Origin: Chloroflexota bacterium
GTDB taxonomy: Bacteria > Chloroflexota > Limnocylindria > Limnocylindrales > CSP1-4
NCBI GenBank assembly: GCA_021785115.1
Contig: JAJYGO010000492.1
Span: forward strand, 1 to 10,977
Length of the DNA: 10,977 nt
Direction: 5' to 3'
In this document: positions 103 to 8,255 of the stretch, piece by piece
Numbering within the stretch: position 1 is the first letter of the stretch
Layout of the letters: the number at the start of each line of letters is the position of its first letter
Position numbers and translations under genes: made by a program
The notes under the pieces: generated by a model
Databases searched by the model: none
What the model saw: only the letters and a program-made list of their open reading frames with translations
What the model was told of the DNA's origin: nothing

Positions 103-312
103 CTAGTCCGTGCTCTCGGGCTTCTCTCCGGACTCCCGGTGCGCGGACCCCTCGTCCGTCTCGGCGGTCGAGTCCTCCCGAAGGCCCTTCTGGAACTCGC
201 TCTTCGCCTGACCGAGCGACCGCGCAAGGTGGGGGATCCTGCTGCCCCCGAACACCACGATCACCGCCAGGATCACGATCACGAGCGTCTCGGGGCTCAC
301 CATGGCGAGCAT
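103..312 (-). CDS. tatA: Twin-arginine translocase subunit, TatA/TatE family
   Basis: A 69-residue TatA-family protein, which forms the size-adjustable pore of the Tat system that exports folded, cofactor-loaded proteins across the cytoplasmic membrane. The sequence shows a short N-terminal segment, one hydrophobic helix (about residues 9-20), the FG hinge (F21-G22), an amphipathic helix containing RIPHLARSLGQAKSEF, and an acidic, low-complexity tail. The layout and length are normal for TatA; TatB is usually longer. The start is the ATG at 312 because AAGGAG (plus-strand 319-324) lies six bases upstream; a second ATG at 303 is too far from it. The gene ends in TAG, 28 nt downstream of the DUF6457 gene on the same strand, so the two are probably one transcript. 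The divergent neighbour encodes a Tat substrate, suggesting functional pairing. No tatC is in the window. Confidence 0.9.
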   Translation of the reverse strand: MLAMVSPETLVIVILAVIVVFGGSRIPHLARSLGQAKSEFQKGLREDSTAETDEGSAHRESGEKPESTD

Positions 313-340
313 GACGATCTCCTTGCTCTCCGCACGGCGC

Positions 341-586
341 CTACCCCAAACCCTCGGCCGCGGGAAGCAGCGTGAGGATCGTCTCGTAGGCGGCTCGGAG
401 ACCCTCCTCGCGCGGCGCCGCGGACGCCGCCGCAACCCCTGCGAGAAAGGCCGAGAGCGGGGCCTGGCGACGATCTCCGGTTCCGTGGGAGACGTCCCGC
501 GCCAGATCCAGGACGACCTGCACCTCCTGATCCGTCATGGGGCCGATGCCCAGTGCCTGCGCCGCCTCCCCGATCCAGTCGACCAC
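341..586 (-). CDS. DUF6457 family protein (small, function unknown)
   Basis: A small 81-residue, probably cytosolic protein that I recognise as DUF6457-like, a short family found mostly in actinobacteria. Visible family traits are the N-terminal VDWIGEAAQALGI helix, a central VVLDLARDVSHGT segment and a following PLSAFLAGVAAA helix; no cysteines and no catalytic motif are apparent. The start is the GTG at 584-586, with a strong AAGGAGG (plus-strand 592-598) five bases away; the open frame continues much further upstream, but that extension is only the antisense shadow of the molybdoenzyme operon. It is the first gene of a two-gene unit with tatA. From memory such genes are often near molybdenum-enzyme or cofactor genes, which fits the neighbourhood; no biochemical role can be deduced. 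Confidence 0.75.
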   Translation of the reverse strand: MVDWIGEAAQALGIGPMTDQEVQVVLDLARDVSHGTGDRRQAPLSAFLAGVAAASAAPREEGLRAAYETILTLLPAAEGLG

Positions 587-671
587 CGCGTCCTCCTTCC
601 ACCGCCGACGTGCTGCCCGCGGGCCCTGCGGCCGGGCCCCGGCGCGATCCACGCGGGCCGCTCGGCCACAC

Positions 672-811: not shown

Positions 812-2830
812 GTGCGACCGATCACTCGTCGGAAGTTTCTCGGAGGGGCCGCGGGAGGCGTGGGGGCGCTCGCCATCGCAAGTCGGCTCCGGTTCCTGGA
901 GTCCGTGCCCTCTGCGTACGCCGATTCCGGCCAGACGCTCACCGGCCCGAGTCAGGTCTTTCGCACGGGTCACTCGAACAACTGCGACGGCGCCTGCGGC
1001 CACCTCGTGCACGTGACGGACGGGCGTGTCACGTTCGTCGGACCAGCGCCGTGGGACGCCACGACGATCGCGGGCCAGCCGGCTCCCCAGATCAACCAGC
1101 GCATCTGCCTGCGCGGGGTGAGCCAGATCCAGAACACCTACAGCCCCGACCGGGTGAAGTATCCCTACAAGCGGGTGGGGCCCCGCGGGTCGGGGAGATG
1201 GCAGCGGATCTCGTGGGACGAGGCGACCTCCCTCATCGCCGAGAACTTCCAGAAGGTTCAGGCGCAGTACGGGGAGAAGTCGGTCTGGATCGCCCCCTAC
1301 ACGGGATCCCTCAGCATCCTCGAGGGCGTCGTGGGCGCAGGATTCCGCCTGGCGAGCGCCATCGGGGCGTCCGCCGGAGATTTCGAGGGCGACAACGAGG
1401 GCGACAGCGCCACGCCGGCGGGATGGAACTACGTGCTGGCCAACCCGGAGATGACCGCCGGCGGGATCTTCGACGGGCACGAGATCACGGACTTCCTGAA
1501 CGCCAAGGTCATCGTGCTGTGGGCGAACAACGTCGCCGAGACCTCCATCCCGGACTGGCGGATCATCGGCGACGCCCGTCGGGGCGGCACGCGCCTCGTC
1601 TCCGTGGACCCGCGCTTCACCCCAACCTCGGCCTCCGCCGACTTCTGGCTCCCGGTCCGGCCGGGCGCCGACACGGCGCTCATCGACGGGGTCATCAACT
1701 ACCTGATCACCACCAAGCAGTACGACGCCGCGTATCTCAAGGCCTACACGGTCGCGCCGTTTCTCGTCGATCCGAACACGAAGCGGTTCCTCCGCGCCTC
1801 GGACCTCCCGTCGGGCAGCGGGAACGACTACGTGGTGGTCGATGCGGCCGACGGCGTGGCAAAGCCCGCGAAGGGGGTCCGAAACCCGGTCCTCTCCGGC
1901 GCTCACACGGTGGCGGGAAGGAAGGCCCCGACAGCCTTCCAGGCCCTCGCCGATGCGATGGCAGAGTACACGCCAGCGCACGTCGCCTCCCTCACCGACC
2001 TCCAGCCGAGCCAGGTGGTCCAGCTCGCGCAGCTCTGGGGGCAGAACCACCCGGTGGCGGTGCGGGCCGGATTCGGCCTCTCGCACTGGGGCCGGGGCGA
2101 TCTCACGATGCAGGCCCTCCTCACCCTGCAGGCCCTGACCGGCAACATCGGCGTCCACGGCGGCGGGGTCACGACCTTCGCGGGCGGGCTCACCACCACC
2201 GCCTTCGACCTCGGGACGTGGTGGTCGCCGGGCGGCAAGACCTTCACGGTGCTCGAGCCGATGGAGTTCTGCGGCGCCGCCCTCGACGGCACGCCCTATC
2301 CGGTCAGGGCCGCCTGGTTCATGGTCGACAACTTCGCCCAGCAGATGTCCGATCGCAATCGGGTCGTGCGGGCCATGCGGTCGCTCGACTTCGTCGTGGT
2401 GTCCGACTACGTGATGTCGGCCACGGCGGACCTCGCCGACGTCGTCCTGCCGGCGTGCACGTACGTCGAGAAGACCGACCTGCTGTCGTCGAACAACTTC
2501 TACCTGCAGTACATGCCGAGGATGATCGAGCCCCTGTGGGAGTCGAGGTCCGATCTGGACGCGATCACCATGGTCGCCCAGAAGATGGGCGTCGGGCAGT
2601 ACTTCGACAAGACCCCGGACGAGTACCTGAAGGAGATCCTCCACATCGGGGATCCGAACGCGGACGCCAACGTCCGGGGACTCACCTGGGAACAGGTCAC
2701 GACCGGCGCGCCGCACCTCAACACCCCGACCGTCCCCTACGTCCCCTTCTTCGACAAGCAGTTCCCGACCACGTCGGGACGGATCGAGTTCTACGTGGAG
2801 ATGCTCATCCCCTACGGGCAGGAGCTGTAG
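812..2830 (+). CDS. Tat-exported molybdopterin oxidoreductase catalytic subunit (DMSO reductase family), ended by in-frame TAG
   Basis: Catalytic subunit of a complex iron-sulfur molybdoenzyme, expected to bind a bis-pterin Mo or W cofactor and one Fe-S cluster and to act outside the cytoplasmic membrane. Residues 5-24 hold the Tat motif TRRKFLGG and a hydrophobic stretch, with an AYA cleavage site near residue 37. The cluster motif is H54-x3-C58-x3-C62 and a later C99: His instead of the first Cys is the hallmark of type II family members such as NarG and the selenate, chlorate and ethylbenzene enzymes. D198 in GDSATPAG is a candidate metal ligand (alignment by eye). Pterin-binding segments follow (VIVLWANN, RLVSVDPRFT, a long middle domain, ADLADVVLPACTYVEKTD). 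The frame stops at TAG 2828-2830 after 672 residues, whereas relatives continue through a C-terminal domain, encoded here just downstream in the same frame. Substrate unknown. First gene of the operon. Confidence 0.9.
   Translation: MRPITRRKFLGGAAGGVGALAIASRLRFLESVPSAYADSGQTLTGPSQVFRTGHSNNCDGACGHLVHVTDGRVTFVGPAPWDATTIAGQPAPQINQRICLRGVSQIQNTYSPDRVKYPYKRVGPRGSGRWQRISWDEATSLIAENFQKVQAQYGEKSVWIAPYTGSLSILEGVVGAGFRLASAIGASAGDFEGDNEGDSATPAGWNYVLANPEMTAGGIFDGHEITDFLNAKVIVLWANNVAETSIPDWRIIGDARRGGTRLVSVDPRFTPTSASADFWLPVRPGADTALIDGVINYLITTKQYDAAYLKAYTVAPFLVDPNTKRFLRASDLPSGSGNDYVVVDAADGVAKPAKGVRNPVLSGAHTVAGRKAPTAFQALADAMAEYTPAHVASLTDLQPSQVVQLAQLWGQNHPVAVRAGFGLSHWGRGDLTMQALLTLQALTGNIGVHGGGVTTFAGGLTTTAFDLGTWWSPGGKTFTVLEPMEFCGAALDGTPYPVRAAWFMVDNFAQQMSDRNRVVRAMRSLDFVVVSDYVMSATADLADVVLPACTYVEKTDLLSSNNFYLQYMPRMIEPLWESRSDLDAITMVAQKMGVGQYFDKTPDEYLKEILHIGDPNADANVRGLTWEQVTTGAPHLNTPTVPYVPFFDKQFPTTSGRIEFYVEMLIPYGQEL
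2828..2830 (+). other. In-frame amber codon inside the molybdoenzyme gene
   Basis: The TAG follows ...IPYGQEL and is followed without any frame change by IGKDQLEASPNNPL, which reads as the normal continuation into the C-terminal domain. It is thus a single nonsense codon, not a frameshift or deletion. TAG is also the terminal stop of tatA, the DUF6457 gene, this gene's own full frame (3278-3280), the M50 protease gene and the isochorismate synthase gene, so general reassignment is unlikely. Possible explanations are a point mutation, a sequencing or consensus error, or readthrough. Confidence 0.9.
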
Positions 2831-3280
2831 ATCGGCAAGGATCAGCTCGAGGCGTCTCCGAACAACCCCCTGTTCGAGAAGTACCCGCTCGTCTTCCTCT
2901 CCACCCACACGCGGTTCCGCACCCACTCGCAGTACTGCAACCTGCCGTGGCTGAAGGAGATCAACAACGGGGGCGAGGGCTTCCTCGAGATCAACCCGGT
3001 CGACGCCGGATCGCGAGGGATCGGCAATGGGGACGTCGTGAGGATCTTCAACGACCGCGGCGACATGAAGGTCCGCGCGCGGCTGACGGAGGGCATCAAG
3101 CCGGGGGTCGTGAACTGCTATCAGGGCGGCTGGGACACGATCAGGGTGAAGCACTACATCGAGGGTCACCCCAACAACCTCACGCACCAGATCGCGAACC
3201 CCGTCCAGTCGGTGATCCCCAATTTCCGGTCCAACGCCGCGTACTTCGACTGCCTGGTCCAGGTCGAGCGCGCAGGGTAG
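2831..3280 (+). pseudogene. Detached C-terminal pterin-binding domain of the molybdoenzyme
   Basis: 149 codons in the same frame as the catalytic subunit, directly after its TAG. The translation contains the hallmarks of the C-terminal molydopterin-dinucleotide-binding domain of the DMSO reductase family: PLVFLSTHTRFRTHSQY, EINPVDAGSRGIGNGDVVRIFNDRG, GIKPGVVNCYQGGWD and GHPNNLTHQIANP, ending FDCLVQVERAG. The family needs this domain to close over one of the two pterins, so the truncated product would probably not hold its cofactor. No ATG, GTG or TTG occurs in frame until GTG 3038, about 70 codons in, so independent translation of the whole domain is unlikely. Codon use matches the upstream part and no second lesion is seen, suggesting a very recent mutation, an error or readthrough. 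Together with the upstream part the gene would encode about 822 residues, normal for the family. Confidence 0.8.
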
Positions 3281-3289
3281 GTGAGAGCC

Positions 3290-4015
3290 ATGGGCAAGCA
3301 CTGGGCGATGGTGATCGACCAGAGCCGCTGCGTCGGTTGCTGGACCTGCGCGGTCGGCTGCAAGGAGGTCAACAACGAGCCCCTCGGCTACTGGTGGAAC
3401 CGCATCCTGACGGGAGCGCCCGCGGACGCGTCGGGTGAGGTCTCGGAGGCGCTCCGGGGCCCCGCCAGCGAGAACATCGACGTTCCCTCCGGCACCTGGC
3501 CCGACCTCGAGATGTCCTACCTCCCGGTGGCCTGCCAGCAGTGCAACGACGCGCCCTGCGTCAAGGTGTGCCCTGTGCAGGCGACCTTCCGCCGAGACGA
3601 CGGGACCGTGCTCGTCGACTACGAGCGCTGCATCGGGTGCAGGTACTGCATCGCCGCGTGCCCCTACGGCGTCCGGATCTTCAACTGGGGCGACGCGATC
3701 CACGACCCCGGCTTCGTGGTCGGGTACGGGAAGGACTACCGAGCCGATGGGCGCCTGGTCTTCACGCCGGACCGTCCCAAGGGGGTCGTCGAGAAGTGCA
3801 CGTTCTGCGTCGAGCGGATCGACGAGGGCGAGGTGCCGTTCTGCGTGGAGGTGTGCCCGGCCGGGGCGCGGGTCTTCGGGGACCTCGACGATCCGACGAG
3901 CGACGTGTCGCAGGCGATCAACGGCCAGGGCGCCGTGCAGCTGCTCTCGGACCTCGGCACGAACCCCAACGTGTTCTACCTGCCGGTCCGCAAGATCAAC
4001 AGGATGCAGGTCTGA
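3290..4015 (+). CDS. Four-cluster [4Fe-4S] electron-transfer subunit (DmsB/NrfC/PsrB-like)
   Basis: Electron-transfer subunit that passes electrons between the catalytic subunit and the membrane anchor. The 241 residues carry four cysteine groups: C14-x2-C17-x2-C20-x3-C24; C82-x2-C85-x4-C90-x3-C94; C114-x2-C117-x2-C120-x3-C124; and C170-x2-C173-x11-C185-x3-C189. This is the usual DmsB-type set of four [4Fe-4S] clusters, and no ligand is missing. There is no signal peptide of its own, as expected for a subunit exported with its Tat-signal partner. The ATG at 3290 is chosen because AGGTGA lies five bases upstream; GTG 3281 is possible and adds three residues. The start is 9 nt after the full-frame stop of the catalytic gene, and the end is 17 nt before the membrane subunit gene. 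An intact gene here argues that the complex is, or was recently, functional. Confidence 0.9.
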   Translation: MGKHWAMVIDQSRCVGCWTCAVGCKEVNNEPLGYWWNRILTGAPADASGEVSEALRGPASENIDVPSGTWPDLEMSYLPVACQQCNDAPCVKVCPVQATFRRDDGTVLVDYERCIGCRYCIAACPYGVRIFNWGDAIHDPGFVVGYGKDYRADGRLVFTPDRPKGVVEKCTFCVERIDEGEVPFCVEVCPAGARVFGDLDDPTSDVSQAINGQGAVQLLSDLGTNPNVFYLPVRKINRMQV

Positions 4016-4032: not shown

Positions 4033-5277
4033 ATGGCAGTGCAGACTGCGACTCCCGCGGGCGAGCCGTCCTCCTCGACGAGATCGCGAACGTGGCTCGC
4101 GACGCTCTCCGTCGTCTTCCTGTGGGGGGTGGCGGCCTGGGGCTACCAGCTCGCTCACGGCCTCGCCGCGACCGGCATGCGAGACGTCGTGTCCTGGGGC
4201 ATGTACATCTTCACCTTCGCATTCTTCGTCGGCCTCTCGGCGGGCGGGCTCATCATGGCCTCGTCCGCAGAGGTGTTCGGCGTCGAGGCCCTGCGCCCGC
4301 TGTCGAAGCTCGGCGTCCTCACGGCCGCGGCCTGCGTCGCGATCGCCGCGATCATGATCGTTCCGGACCTCGGACGTCCCTTCCGCCTGCTCAACATCGT
4401 GCTCCATCCCAACTGGACCTCGCCGCTCGTCTGGGACATCGTGATCATCAGCATCTACTTCCTGTTCTCGGTGGTCGACCTGTGGGTCATGACCCGGCGG
4501 GGAACGCGCCCCTCGTCCCGAGCGAAGGCGCTCCGGGTCCTCGCCTACGTGGGTCTTCCCACCGCCGTGCTGCTGCACTCGATCACGGCATGGATCTTCG
4601 GGCTCCAGATCGCGAGGTCGTGGTGGAACACGGCGCTCATGGCCCCGCTGTTCGTGGTCTCCGCGATCCTCTCGGGAACGGCGCTGATCGCGCTGATCGC
4701 GCTCGCGGCCACACGCTTCGACAAGGTCGTCGTTCCCGAGCGGACCTGGCGGCTCCTGGCCGGGCTTCTCGCGGTCGGCATCGCCGTCGACCTGTTCTTC
4801 GTGGCGAGTGACTACATCACGATCCTGTGGGGCAACGTCCCGCGCGAGCGCGCGGCCCTGAACCTGATCCTGCCCGGGGGCAGCTGGCAGTGGCTGTTCT
4901 GGCTGGAGTGGGTGGCCGGTGGCATCGTGCCGTTCCTGCTGCTCGTGATGCCCTCCACCAAGCGACGGCTCGGGATGATGGGGCTCGCCTCCGCGCTGAT
5001 CCTCGTCGGTGTCTATGCGTTCCGCATCGAGCTCGTCGTGGGCGGCATGCTGCGCCCGATGCTCGACTTCCCGCCTGGGAACGCGCTCGGCACCTACACG
5101 CCCGGCCGGAGCGTGTTCCAGTTCGGCGGCGTCTACCACCCCACCTGGGTCGAGTACTCGATCGTGGCGGGGCTCATCGCGCTGTTCGCCCTCATCGTGA
5201 CCGTCGGGTACCGGAAGCTTCGCGTCATGGAGTCCGCCGACGAGGGGCCGCGTCCGGGGATGCCCGAGGATGTCTGA
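4033..5277 (+). CDS. NrfD/PsrC-type membrane anchor, quinone-interacting subunit
   Basis: Integral membrane subunit that anchors the molybdoenzyme and exchanges electrons with the quinone pool; family members are haem-free. The 414 residues show about ten hydrophobic segments (roughly 21-40, 52-78, 91-111, 131-153, 168-190, 199-227, 239-267, 285-306, 312-338, 374-394), which matches the ten-helix HybB/ActC-like branch better than the eight-helix PsrC form. Characteristic NrfD features are the early glycine-rich SAGGL segment (69-73) and DLGRPFRLLNIVLHP followed by SPLVWD. The start ATG has GGAGGAGGG nine bases upstream. The gene overlaps the TorD-like gene by 8 nt (ATGTCTGA), implying translational coupling. 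Since menaquinone is the usual actinobacterial quinone, it is the probable partner (inference). Confidence 0.88.
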   Translation: MAVQTATPAGEPSSSTRSRTWLATLSVVFLWGVAAWGYQLAHGLAATGMRDVVSWGMYIFTFAFFVGLSAGGLIMASSAEVFGVEALRPLSKLGVLTAAACVAIAAIMIVPDLGRPFRLLNIVLHPNWTSPLVWDIVIISIYFLFSVVDLWVMTRRGTRPSSRAKALRVLAYVGLPTAVLLHSITAWIFGLQIARSWWNTALMAPLFVVSAILSGTALIALIALAATRFDKVVVPERTWRLLAGLLAVGIAVDLFFVASDYITILWGNVPRERAALNLILPGGSWQWLFWLEWVAGGIVPFLLLVMPSTKRRLGMMGLASALILVGVYAFRIELVVGGMLRPMLDFPPGNALGTYTPGRSVFQFGGVYHPTWVEYSIVAGLIALFALIVTVGYRKLRVMESADEGPRPGMPEDV

Positions 5278-5893
5278 GACCGACGGCGTCACCGTGCAGC
5301 TCGAGGAGGCGGCAGGGGCCGCAGAGCTGATGGCGCACTGGTGGAGTCGGCCGATCGACGAGGAGCGTGCATCGTGGGCGCAGCTCGGCGGGCATGCCGC
5401 GGAGATCGTCGCCGGGATCGGCCTCGACGCGGACGCGGCCGAGTGGGCCGCAGGGATCGCGACGACCCGCGAGGAGGGCATGCTCGAGGAGTACGAACGC
5501 CTCTTCGTCGGGCCCGGCCGAACCCCCTGCGCGCCCTACGAATCGCTCTGGCGAGCCGACGCGCCGCGCCGGGAGCGCGGCCTGCTGATGGGGCCGGCCA
5601 CGATCGAGGTTCAGGCCCTGTGTCGAGAGATGGGCCTCACGATGCGGGCGGAGGTCCACGAGCTGCCCGACCACGTCGTCGTCGAGTGGGAGGCCCTCGC
5701 GTTTGCCCTGGCGGAGGGAAGGCTGGAGCCGGGACGCCGGCTCCTCGTCGAGCACCTCGCGATCTGGCTGCCGGAGCTCTGCGACGCCATCGTCCGGGAG
5801 ACGTCGAGCCCCTTCTACTCCGAGCTCGCCGCCCGGACCCCTTCCTGGGTGCGAGCCCTCGGGAGCAGCCTGGAGCTTGCCGTCGCCGGGTGA
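5270..5893 (+). CDS. TorD/DmsD-family molybdoenzyme assembly chaperone
   Basis: Cytosolic redox-enzyme maturation chaperone, expected to bind the Tat signal and folding intermediate of the catalytic subunit and hold it until the cofactor is inserted. The 207-residue, largely helical protein has the family signatures EEYERLFVGPGRTPCAPYESLW (about 73-94, key residues Y75, F79, P88 and Y90) and ELPDHVVVEWEALAFAL (131-147, equivalent to the E-x-PDH motif of TorD). The length is typical and nothing is missing. It starts inside the last codons of the NrfD gene and ends 14 nt before the next gene. Its presence within the operon supports the interpretation that the catalytic subunit is a true Moco enzyme requiring dedicated maturation. 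Confidence 0.88.
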   Translation: MSETDGVTVQLEEAAGAAELMAHWWSRPIDEERASWAQLGGHAAEIVAGIGLDADAAEWAAGIATTREEGMLEEYERLFVGPGRTPCAPYESLWRADAPRRERGLLMGPATIEVQALCREMGLTMRAEVHELPDHVVVEWEALAFALAEGRLEPGRRLLVEHLAIWLPELCDAIVRETSSPFYSELAARTPSWVRALGSSLELAVAG

Positions 5894-5900: not shown

Positions 5901-5907
5901 CGTCGCG

Positions 5908-7557
5908 TTGGCAACCGCACCCGAGCGAGTCGGCACTGCAGGGTCCGGGCGCACCCCTCGGGCCGTGCACGTGCTGTGCGAGCGACTCGAGCGGATGGGA
6001 GAGGGACTCGATCTCCGGCACATAGGGGCCCACCTGAGGTGGATCGATCCGTCCGCGCAGGTCACGACCGCAGACCTGTGCGCGGAGCCCGGGGCGGTCG
6101 CGATGGCGGTGAACGAGGCAGGGGCACCCCTCGCGGTCATCGGATCCTGCGGCGGCGCCTGCGCCGGCCGTGAGCCCGTCCTCTGGGCACGACGCGGTGG
6201 GGCCGGACCGTTCAGCGTGGAGACCGTCGATCTGGCGCGGTTCACGCGGGAGGTGGGCGGGGAGACACGTTCCCGAGGGGCGGCCCGGGACCTGATTGCG
6301 GCCGTCGCCAGGGTCCGCGCCCTTCGACCCGACGACGAGGCATCCTTCCGTGTGACGGCGCCCCGTGGAGGGCTTTCGCGACGTGGTCTCGCCCTGATGT
6401 TGGGAGCGCTCGACCGCGTGCCGGTTCCCACGATCGACCACGCACGGTGCGCAGGGACGCGATGGTGCCGGCGCTGCAGGGATGCATGCCCAACCGACGC
6501 GCTCACCCTCGACGGCGGTCGCATCCACGTTCAGCCATCCGCATGTCGAGGGTGCGGGCTCTGCGTGACTGCCTGCCCGACACAGGCCATCGGCCTCGCA
6601 GGCTCCGCCCTCCCCCAGATCGAGGCCCAGCTCGAAGCCGCACTGACCGCCCTGCCCGGCGAGCATGCGGACGCTCGAAGAGGGATCCTTCTCGCCTGCC
6701 GCGGCGCCGATCCGGCCTCCGAGGACCAATCCCTCGCGGCCTACGCCGCCGTCGAGGTCCCGTGCGTTCGGATGGCGACGCCCGGATGGGCGCTGCAGGC
6801 ACTCGCCGCGGGGGCCTCGAGCGTGGTCGTCGACCCCTGCGGTGAGACGTGCCGAGCCATCTGGCACCAGCGTGCGGCGGCCGTCGTTCGGATCCTGGCC
6901 TCTCTGGCCATCGGCGACGCAGACGAGAGAGTCCGGGTGGTCCCGACGGGGCACCCCGCCTCGAACCCCGGAACCTTCCACCTGCCGCCAGCGCTCGTGG
7001 AGCCCGGAGGCATGCCGATAACGCTCGCGGAGCCGGAGGCCACGGCCCGGGCGATCGCCCACCTGGCTCCCCGTGGGAGACGCCCCTCCCCCACCCGCGT
7101 CGAGCTGCAGGAGTCGGTCATCGGCGTCGCGCACGTGGTCGAGGACGCGTGCACGCTGTGCGGTGCCTGCGCCCAGGCCTGTCCCACCGGCTCGCTCTCG
7201 CAGGTCGAGGACGAACGCATCCGCCTGCTGTTCGACCCATGTCGCTGCGCCGCCTGCGCGGCGTGCGTGGCCGCCTGCCCCGAGCGGGCCATCTCGGTGG
7301 AGGCGGTGGTGGACCCGACAGTCGTCCTCGGCGGGATCGCCGCGCTCGCGGCCGCCGAGCGGCAGGCCTGCGAGCGCTGTGGGGGAGCGCTGCCTCCCCC
7401 AGGGATGAGGGCGCGCATCTGGGAGACGCTCGGTGGATCCGACGAATCCAGACCGCTCGACATGAGCATCTGCGTCGCCTGCGGGCTCTCCGCGTCTTCG
7501 GGCGCGAGGGCCCCGAGCGCGGGGGCCGCGAGCGCCGGGGCCGGTCCGCGAGGGTGA
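5908..7557 (+). CDS. Mosaic iron-sulfur protein: HdrA-N-like, ferredoxin, MvhD-like, ferredoxin, zinc-ribbon-like
   Basis: Probable cytosolic electron-transfer protein of 549 residues. Residues ~19-112 resemble the N-terminal domain of heterodisulfide reductase HdrA (C24, C58 in DLC, C81 in GSC, then REPVLWARRGGAGPFSVETVDLA). A dicluster ferredoxin follows: C181-x5-C187-x2-C190-x3-C194, then C213-x2-C216-x2-C219-x3-C223. Residues ~258-335 resemble MvhD, the hydrogenase Fe-S subunit (C264, C286, G-A-SSVVVDPCGETC with C311 and C315). A second dicluster ferredoxin has C415/C418/C421/C425 and C447/C450/C453/C457. Two CxxC pairs (C488/C491, C522/C525) suggest a zinc ribbon or rubredoxin-like knuckle; the tail is Ala/Gly-rich. 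No GxGxxG flavin domain, signal peptide or membrane segment is seen. It lies 14 nt after the TorD-like gene and overlaps the YwiC-like gene by 4 nt. Partner and direction of electron flow are unknown; homology is judged by eye. Confidence 0.8.
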   Translation: MATAPERVGTAGSGRTPRAVHVLCERLERMGEGLDLRHIGAHLRWIDPSAQVTTADLCAEPGAVAMAVNEAGAPLAVIGSCGGACAGREPVLWARRGGAGPFSVETVDLARFTREVGGETRSRGAARDLIAAVARVRALRPDDEASFRVTAPRGGLSRRGLALMLGALDRVPVPTIDHARCAGTRWCRRCRDACPTDALTLDGGRIHVQPSACRGCGLCVTACPTQAIGLAGSALPQIEAQLEAALTALPGEHADARRGILLACRGADPASEDQSLAAYAAVEVPCVRMATPGWALQALAAGASSVVVDPCGETCRAIWHQRAAAVVRILASLAIGDADERVRVVPTGHPASNPGTFHLPPALVEPGGMPITLAEPEATARAIAHLAPRGRRPSPTRVELQESVIGVAHVVEDACTLCGACAQACPTGSLSQVEDERIRLLFDPCRCAACAACVAACPERAISVEAVVDPTVVLGGIAALAAAERQACERCGGALPPPGMRARIWETLGGSDESRPLDMSICVACGLSASSGARAPSAGAASAGAGPRG

Positions 7558-8255
7558 GCGGGGCAAGACCCGAGCCAGCGGCGGGAGCCCGACCGGTCAG
7601 CCGGCGTGGTCGCCTGGGATTCGTCCCGCGCGAACACGGGGCGACCTTCATCTCGGTGCACGCCTTGCTGCTCGGGCTGATCGGGGGGCTCGTGGCCGGC
7701 CGGGTTGGCTGGCACGCGCTGTGGGGGGCGCTGTGCGCGGCGGCCTTCGTCGCGATGCTGCTCCCCCTCGCCGCCGCCGTGGCGGTCTGGAGCCATCCGG
7801 CGCTCGGCCCCCTGGCCCGGCAGCGGGCCTGGCGGCTGCTCCCCGCCCTCGCCATGGTCGGCGCGGCCGCGCTTGCGATCGGCCCCCGGGCTCAGATCGT
7901 CGCCCTCGGGTGCGCTGGGGGCGGGTTGGGCGCGGCCTACCTGGCCGTACGCCGGCGGTGGGGACCGAGATCCGCCGGCGCGGAGCTCGCGGCCATCGCG
8001 GCCATCGGCCTCGTCGGACCGCTGGCCTGGATCCTGGTCGGGGGCGCGAGCGCTCGCTGGTACCTGGCGGCCCCAGCCATGTTCCTCGCGGCCGGTGGCA
8101 CGGTCCCGTATGTGCGGGAGCGAGTGCGCCGACGGCCGGTTCGCGACCTCCGCCTACGGCGTCGGGTCCGCCGAGGCGCTCCGGCCCTGCTCTGGCAGGC
8201 GGCGCTCGCCGGCCTCGCCCTCGCCGGTGCCGGCGCCGGCGCCGGGCCGAGGTGA
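7554..8255 (+). CDS. YwiC-like membrane protein
   Basis: A 233-residue multi-pass membrane protein resembling the YwiC family. The diagnostic mark is PREHGATF (25-32) just before the first hydrophobic segment; about five or six further hydrophobic stretches follow (35-55, 57-79, 97-117, 118-131, 144-164, 170-185). The family function is unknown; in Bacillus subtilis ywiC sits in the nar/fnr region, so association with anaerobic respiration recurs. The start is GTG 7554, overlapping the preceding stop by 4 nt (GTGA), with only GCGAGG directly before it, implying translational coupling. The C-terminus is odd: after a basic stretch (RRRPVRDLRLRRRVRRG) the last helix breaks off in an Ala/Gly run, AGLALAGAGAGAGPR, encoded by GCCGGC repeats. 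It may be shortened relative to the family. Confidence 0.75.
   Translation: MSGARPEPAAGARPVSRRGRLGFVPREHGATFISVHALLLGLIGGLVAGRVGWHALWGALCAAAFVAMLLPLAAAVAVWSHPALGPLARQRAWRLLPALAMVGAAALAIGPRAQIVALGCAGGGLGAAYLAVRRRWGPRSAGAELAAIAAIGLVGPLAWILVGGASARWYLAAPAMFLAAGGTVPYVRERVRRRPVRDLRLRRRVRRGAPALLWQAALAGLALAGAGAGAGPR

What the first reader, a model, noticed from the sequence alone, without database searches (positions are those of the whole stretch)
2828..2830. Single in-frame TAG splits an otherwise complete molybdoenzyme gene
The frame is continuous across 812-3280 except for one TAG between ...IPYGQEL and IGKDQLEASP. The 149 following codons encode a well-formed C-terminal pterin-binding domain with no further lesion, and no ATG/GTG/TTG occurs in frame for about 70 codons, so separate translation of the whole domain is unlikely. 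The downstream partner genes are intact. Five genes here, including this one, end in TAG, arguing against genome-wide recoding. Options are a recent nonsense mutation, a consensus error, or true amber readthrough or suppression (Sec is excluded since that uses TGA).
Basis: partly seen in the sequence, partly recalled or inferred. Interest (0 to 1): 0.72.

Follow-up and report, generated by a model that had tools for sequence, protein, structure and literature searches.

The report
Sequencing-adapter scrap mimicking a stop codon
The stop codon that seems to cut this bacterial enzyme gene in two sits in a seven-letter patch that spells the start of a standard Illumina sequencing adapter, while a nearly identical copy of the gene in another record is intact, so it is most likely an assembly error and not biology.

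Summary
The TAG at 2828-2830 is really in the record, and the frame 812-3280 is otherwise open. The lesion is wider than one codon. A near-identical intact copy in another public record (P0001, on an 11,522-base contig) matches the read-through window protein at 819 of 822 residues when the GTG start is read as M. The three differences are contiguous, residues 673-675: the TAG and the next two codons. The residues implied by the two codons after the TAG occur in 0 of 119 listed relatives. At least six of the seven bases 2829-2835 cannot encode the intact copy's residues. Those seven bases read AGATCGG, the first seven of a common Illumina adapter (printed in PMC10038132; the name TruSeq is recalled). 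Start, end and orientation of the altered block fit an untrimmed adapter tail; length and frame are unchanged. None of the 18 closest genomic loci has a stop in the aligned gene. Most likely a short adapter remnant entered the contig consensus, and the organism makes a normal full-length DMSO-reductase-family enzyme. A genuine multi-base null allele is possible but unlikely; amber readthrough has no support. Raw reads, which would settle it, were not available.

The parts
2829..2835 (+). Altered 7-base block AGATCGG, identical to the first 7 bases of the common Illumina adapter; with the T at 2828 it creates the TAG
   Evidence: At least 6 of 7 positions (2829, 2830, 2831, 2832, 2834, 2835) cannot encode the residues of the intact sister copy P0001; 2833 undetermined; the flanks 2828 and 2836 are compatible. 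Adapter sequence printed in PMC10038132.
2828..2830 (+). Apparent in-frame TAG, residue 673 of the read-through frame
   Evidence: 119 relatives have C 57, P 55, A 7 here.
812..3280 (+). Molybdopterin oxidoreductase catalytic subunit with twin-arginine-type N-terminus (motif recalled), DMSO-reductase family; interrupted only by the block
   Evidence: PF00384 in residues 114-589 of the part before the TAG and PF01568 in the part after it; intact sister P0001, 822 aa.
3281..4015 (+). 4Fe-4S subunit
   Evidence: PF13247. Protein P0121 is listed on 2 contigs, the longest of 11,522 bases, and is letter-identical to the window over its 241 aa.
4033..5277 (+). NrfD-type membrane subunit
   Evidence: PF03916, E 1.1e-49.
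5270..5893 (+). DmsD/TorD/NarJ-type maturation chaperone
   Evidence: PF02613, E 2.1e-21; below cut-off to DmsD NF008632, 50 of 162 bits.

Best explanation
The TAG is an assembly artefact. A sequencing read from a short fragment ran through its insert into the Illumina adapter. Seven adapter bases, too few for some trimmers, stayed on the read or contig end. When that end was aligned over the neighbouring sequence, by contig merging, overlap consensus or read-back polishing, the seven foreign bases replaced the true seven without changing length. Shown here: the block, its exact identity to the adapter prefix, the intact near-identical copy elsewhere, and the absence of stops in the closest relatives. 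Inferred: that the match is causal, and the pipeline step at which the replacement happened. The living organism most likely has an intact catalytic subunit.
For: P0001 from another record agrees at 819 of 822 residues, and the three differences are contiguous at 673-675; three random differences would be contiguous with probability about 9e-6. Definite base differences start at 2829 and end at 2835, and 2829-2835 is AGATCGG; a given 7-mer has probability 4.5e-5 to 6.1e-5, about 3.7e-4 if six common adapter ends are allowed. The orientation is that of an adapter at the 3' end of a read on the + strand. The residues implied after the TAG occur in 0 of 119 listed relatives. 0 of the 18 closest loci has a stop in the aligned gene. 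[quoted passage not shown]
Against: Only 7 bases match; the adapter does not continue in the window (C at 2836 where the adapter has A), so the identification rests on position as much as on length. Longer adapter remnants mostly sit at contig ends (121 of 125 near and outward), while this one is interior. The 11,522-base contig is not the very same consensus: its isochorismate synthase differs from the window's at 2 of 431 residues, A59T and A64R, the latter needing at least two adjacent base changes, so real strain variation exists between the two records. The DNA of the intact copy was not available, only its protein. No reads were available.
Confidence: 0.91

Rival explanations
1. A genuine null allele: the sampled strain carries a real multi-base replacement (clustered mutation, template switch or recombination) that truncates the enzyme before its molybdopterin-dinucleotide-binding domain, making a recent pseudogene.
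For: The two records come from slightly different strains (2 of 431 residues differ in isochorismate synthase, one by an at least two-base change), so real differences occur. The PF01568 domain lies wholly downstream of the TAG (residues 693-799 of P0001), so a real stop would probably inactivate the enzyme.
Against: The replaced block is exactly an adapter prefix in adapter orientation. No template longer than 8 bases covering it exists in the window; the 8-base one (minus strand, 9763) does not extend further. The 147 residues after the block equal those of the intact copy, and the next three genes show open frames with their expected domains.
Confidence: 0.06
2. A sequencing or assembly error of some other kind, not adapter-derived, such as a low-coverage consensus tangle between strains.
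For: The strain differences seen make consensus trouble plausible, and an in-register error with no indel fits a consensus step.
Against: Any other error source would have to hit the adapter 7-mer by chance, about 5e-5. The implied residues match no listed relative (0 of 119), so the block does not look like sister-strain sequence.
Confidence: 0.025
3. True amber readthrough, suppression or pyrrolysine insertion at the TAG.
For: The downstream frame is open and codes for a recognisable domain.
Against: 0 of the 18 closest loci has a stop in the aligned gene. Two neighbouring residues are wrong as well, which recoding would not explain. TAG ends five genes in the window. PylS: 0 of 4 genomes carrying relatives is over the cut-off; sub-cut-off matches occur in 4 of 4, as they do in most controls (13 of 14, 1 over the cut-off). 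Those genomes are not the window's organism. No tRNA in the window.
Confidence: 0.005

Closest known systems
Illumina adapter read-through remnant (AGATCGGAAGAGC..., TruSeq by recall)
   Same: The altered block is the first 7 adapter bases, in the orientation expected at a read 3' end, with exact start and end.
   Different: Only 7 bases long, interior to the contig rather than at its end, and followed in register by true sequence.
DmsABC/PsrABC-like membrane-anchored molybdoenzymes (DMSO-reductase family) with DmsD/TorD-type chaperone
   Same: Gene order catalytic subunit, 4Fe-4S subunit, NrfD membrane subunit, chaperone; Pfam PF00384, PF01568, PF13247, PF03916, PF02613.
   Different: The catalytic subunit is far below the cut-off of the best NCBIfam model (TIGR03479, 357 of 985 bits) and of the other 24 shown of 27. 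The 4Fe-4S subunit is just under the DsrO cut-off (199.1 of 200 bits) and the membrane subunit well under DsrP (141 of 350). The substrate is unassigned. The close relatives are mostly MAGs of actinobacterial lineages.

Membership tests
Illumina adapter remnant in an assembly | Altered bases equal an adapter prefix, beginning at the first altered base | tested here: met
   2829-2835 = AGATCGG; definite differences begin at 2829 and end at 2835; adapter printed in PMC10038132.
Illumina adapter remnant in an assembly | Independent sequence of the same gene lacks the block | tested here: met
   P0001, 819 of 822 residues, differs only at 673-675; at protein level only, and from a sister strain rather than the identical consensus.
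Illumina adapter remnant in an assembly | Reads at the place end in adapter, other reads cross with true sequence | not testable with these tools
   No reads held; the window's genome is not held.
Natural pseudogene by nonsense mutation | Single change from a sense codon of the closest copy | tested here: not met
   At least 6 of 7 adjacent bases differ from what the intact copy needs.
Amber readthrough / pyrrolysine gene | In-frame TAG conserved at the same place in relatives | tested here: not met
   0 of the 18 closest loci has a stop in the aligned gene; only the window's own protein among the 120 listed is truncated.
Amber readthrough / pyrrolysine gene | Suppressor tRNA or PylS/pylT in the genome | tested here: inconclusive
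   Own genome not held; no tRNA in the window; 0 of 4 genomes carrying relatives over the PylS cut-off.
DMSO-reductase-family molybdoenzyme | PF00384 plus PF01568 in one polypeptide | tested here: met
   Both domains in intact P0001; split by the block in the window.

The most novel reading that the evidence does not exclude
A strain of this uncultured, probably actinobacterial, organism truly carries the TAG and reads it through, or regulates the enzyme through it, and the match to the adapter prefix is coincidence.
Probability: 0.01. Interest if true: 0.45.

Novelty: not a real feature. Interest (0 to 1): 0.06.

Why it matters
It suggests a practical check for genome scans: before calling a lone in-frame stop recoding or a pseudogene, see whether the codons beside it also disagree with relatives and whether the altered block spells an adapter prefix. 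Because this adapter begins AG, a remnant that follows a T in the first codon position reads TAG, so such remnants can imitate amber codons. Here the truncated protein is listed in a protein collection as P0002, the window's own.

Tried and rejected
Searched for the same species in held whole genomes. The window's genome is not held. The isochorismate synthase gene against 399 genomes of G001's class matched 291, with the best-scoring place only 71% identical over 479 aligned query bases; the match list was cut. P0001 against 101 genomes of G001's family gave 1 of 101 over the threshold, G001 itself at 75% identity. Considered a local template switch as the source of the block: no template over 8 bases in the window. 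Considered that the other two occurrences of the 7-mer, on the minus strand (2550, 9764), are also remnants: rejected, since the window protein agrees with the sister proteins across both. Considered selenocysteine (wrong codon) and pyrrolysine (0 of 4 over cut-off). A composition-only argument was rejected: AGATCGG is not rare in the window (3 found, 2.81 expected). Rfam found nothing in the window. Paper searches on adapters in contigs were seen as listings only, none plainly about adapter remnants making false stops; this is not a claim that nothing is in print. Only PMC10038132 was opened (passages, section 16). The interior adapter 15-mer in L153 reads like ordinary sequence and is not used as a precedent; a third one more than 250 bases from a locus end, in L181, was not looked at.

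Full report
Observation. The window encodes, at 812-3280 on the + strand, a molybdopterin oxidoreductase catalytic subunit with a twin-arginine-type start (motif recalled) and one in-frame TAG at 2828-2830. The part before the TAG carries PF00384; the part after it is the PF01568 molybdopterin-dinucleotide-binding domain.

What the lesion really is. A search with the read-through protein (X at the stop) returned 619 proteins among the 7,996 candidates scored, the best 120 listed. The best, P0001, is an intact 822-residue protein on an 11,522-base contig of another public record. It equals the window protein at 819 of 822 residues with the GTG start read as M, and the three differences are residues 673, 674 and 675, side by side. 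The window's two codons after the TAG are therefore out of line too: in 119 relatives (120 listed less the window's own), I is never seen at 674 and G never at 675. At DNA level at least six of the seven bases 2829-2835 cannot encode the intact residues, base 2833 is undetermined, and both flanking bases are compatible. The block is in register: no base is gained or lost.

The block spells an adapter. 2829-2835 reads AGATCGG, the first seven bases of the Illumina adapter that PMC10038132 prints (passages; the name TruSeq is recalled). The match begins at the first altered base, ends at the last definite one, and has the orientation of an adapter at a read's 3' end. A given 7-mer has probability about 5e-5 here, and about 4e-4 if six common adapter ends are allowed. 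The 7-mer itself is common enough in the window (3 found, 2.81 expected); the coincidence lies in its filling the altered block. The other two occurrences, 2550 and 9764 on the minus strand, lie where the protein agrees with the sister proteins and are taken as natural.

Relatives. The 18 closest genomic loci, at 64% identity or more in tblastn, show no stop in the aligned gene; looser relatives among the loci held were left out. Their codon at residue 673 is TGC in 8, TGT in 4, GCC in 3, CCC in 2 and CCG in 1. Their titles name uncultured Actinomycetota such as Solirubrobacterales and Acidimicrobiales, two carrying genus names (Nakamurella, Jatrophihabitans). Among the 120 listed proteins only the window's own is shorter than 700 residues.

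Is the intact copy from the same organism? Nearly. The 4Fe-4S subunit P0121 is letter-identical over its 241 residues and is recorded on two contigs, the longest of 11,522 bases. The isochorismate synthase P0241, again on an 11,522-base contig, agrees at 429 of 431 residues (A59T, A64R). So the two records look like sister strains, not the same consensus. This counts somewhat against a pure artefact reading, since real differences exist, but those two are single-residue swaps and nothing like a three-codon block with a stop.

Control for adapters in public contigs. They hold 125 matches: 122 within 250 bases of a locus end, 123 pointing towards the nearer end, 121 both (a locus end is taken here as a stand-in for the contig end). 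Of the exceptions, L113 is a complete 33-base adapter with further tail in the middle of a contig, with other sequence continuing after it; L153 looks natural; L162 and L181 were not looked at. So adapter remnants survive in published assemblies, mostly at ends. An interior remnant such as the one proposed here needs a further step, such as merging contig ends or consensus polishing; that step is inferred. Very short tails are described as sometimes difficult to detect (PMC10038132, passage; trimmer comparison in section 16).

Alternatives. A real clustered mutation would have to hit the adapter prefix by chance, and no template longer than 8 bases exists in the window. Amber recoding explains neither the two wrong neighbours nor the lack of the stop in relatives. 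PylS matches in 4 genomes holding relatives were all under the cut-off (0 of 4 over; controls ring in 13 of 14, 1 over); this is a weak test because the window's own genome is not held.

Verdict. Not a biological feature: most likely a seven-base adapter remnant in the contig consensus. The gene in the organism is probably an intact catalytic subunit of a DMSO-reductase-family complex with a 4Fe-4S subunit, an NrfD membrane subunit and a DmsD/TorD-type chaperone. Its substrate is not assigned: the 25 NCBIfam models shown (of 27) for the catalytic subunit score below their cut-offs, and the 4Fe-4S subunit comes just short of the DsrO cut-off (199.1 of 200 bits).

Noticed in passing
window 2549-2556: A TCCGATCT (reverse complement of the adapter's first 8 bases) ends 272 bases before the altered block, in codons for S-D-L that P0001 and P0003-P0005 share. 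It could be a mispriming site for library primers; probably coincidence.
   Followed up: partly
window 5902-7557: A 551-residue protein with two 4Fe-4S regions, weakly like HdrA and RnfB ferredoxin parts and below their cut-offs, follows the chaperone gene. Possibly an electron-transfer partner of the molybdoenzyme.
   Followed up: partly
window 3281-4015: The 4Fe-4S subunit scores 199.1 bits against the NCBIfam DsrO cut-off of 200, a borderline likeness to the DsrMKJOP electron-transfer complex.
   Followed up: no
window 7617-8255: A 212-residue hydrophobic protein with an REHGA motif near its start has no Pfam match up to E 1. It resembles YwiC-like membrane proteins by recall only.
   Followed up: partly
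window 103-435 and 341-595, minus strand: A TatA-type translocase gene (PF02416) and a DUF6457 gene (PF20058) sit divergently beside the twin-arginine-type molybdoenzyme operon.
   Followed up: partly
window 9706 and 9721: The isochorismate synthase differs from its sister P0241 at A59T and A64R, the latter needing at least two adjacent base changes; evidence of strain variation between the two records.
   Followed up: partly
L113 3889-3951: A published IMG/VR contig holds a complete 33-base Illumina adapter with what reads (by recall) as index and flow-cell tail in its middle, followed by further sequence: a chimeric or misassembled record.
   Followed up: no
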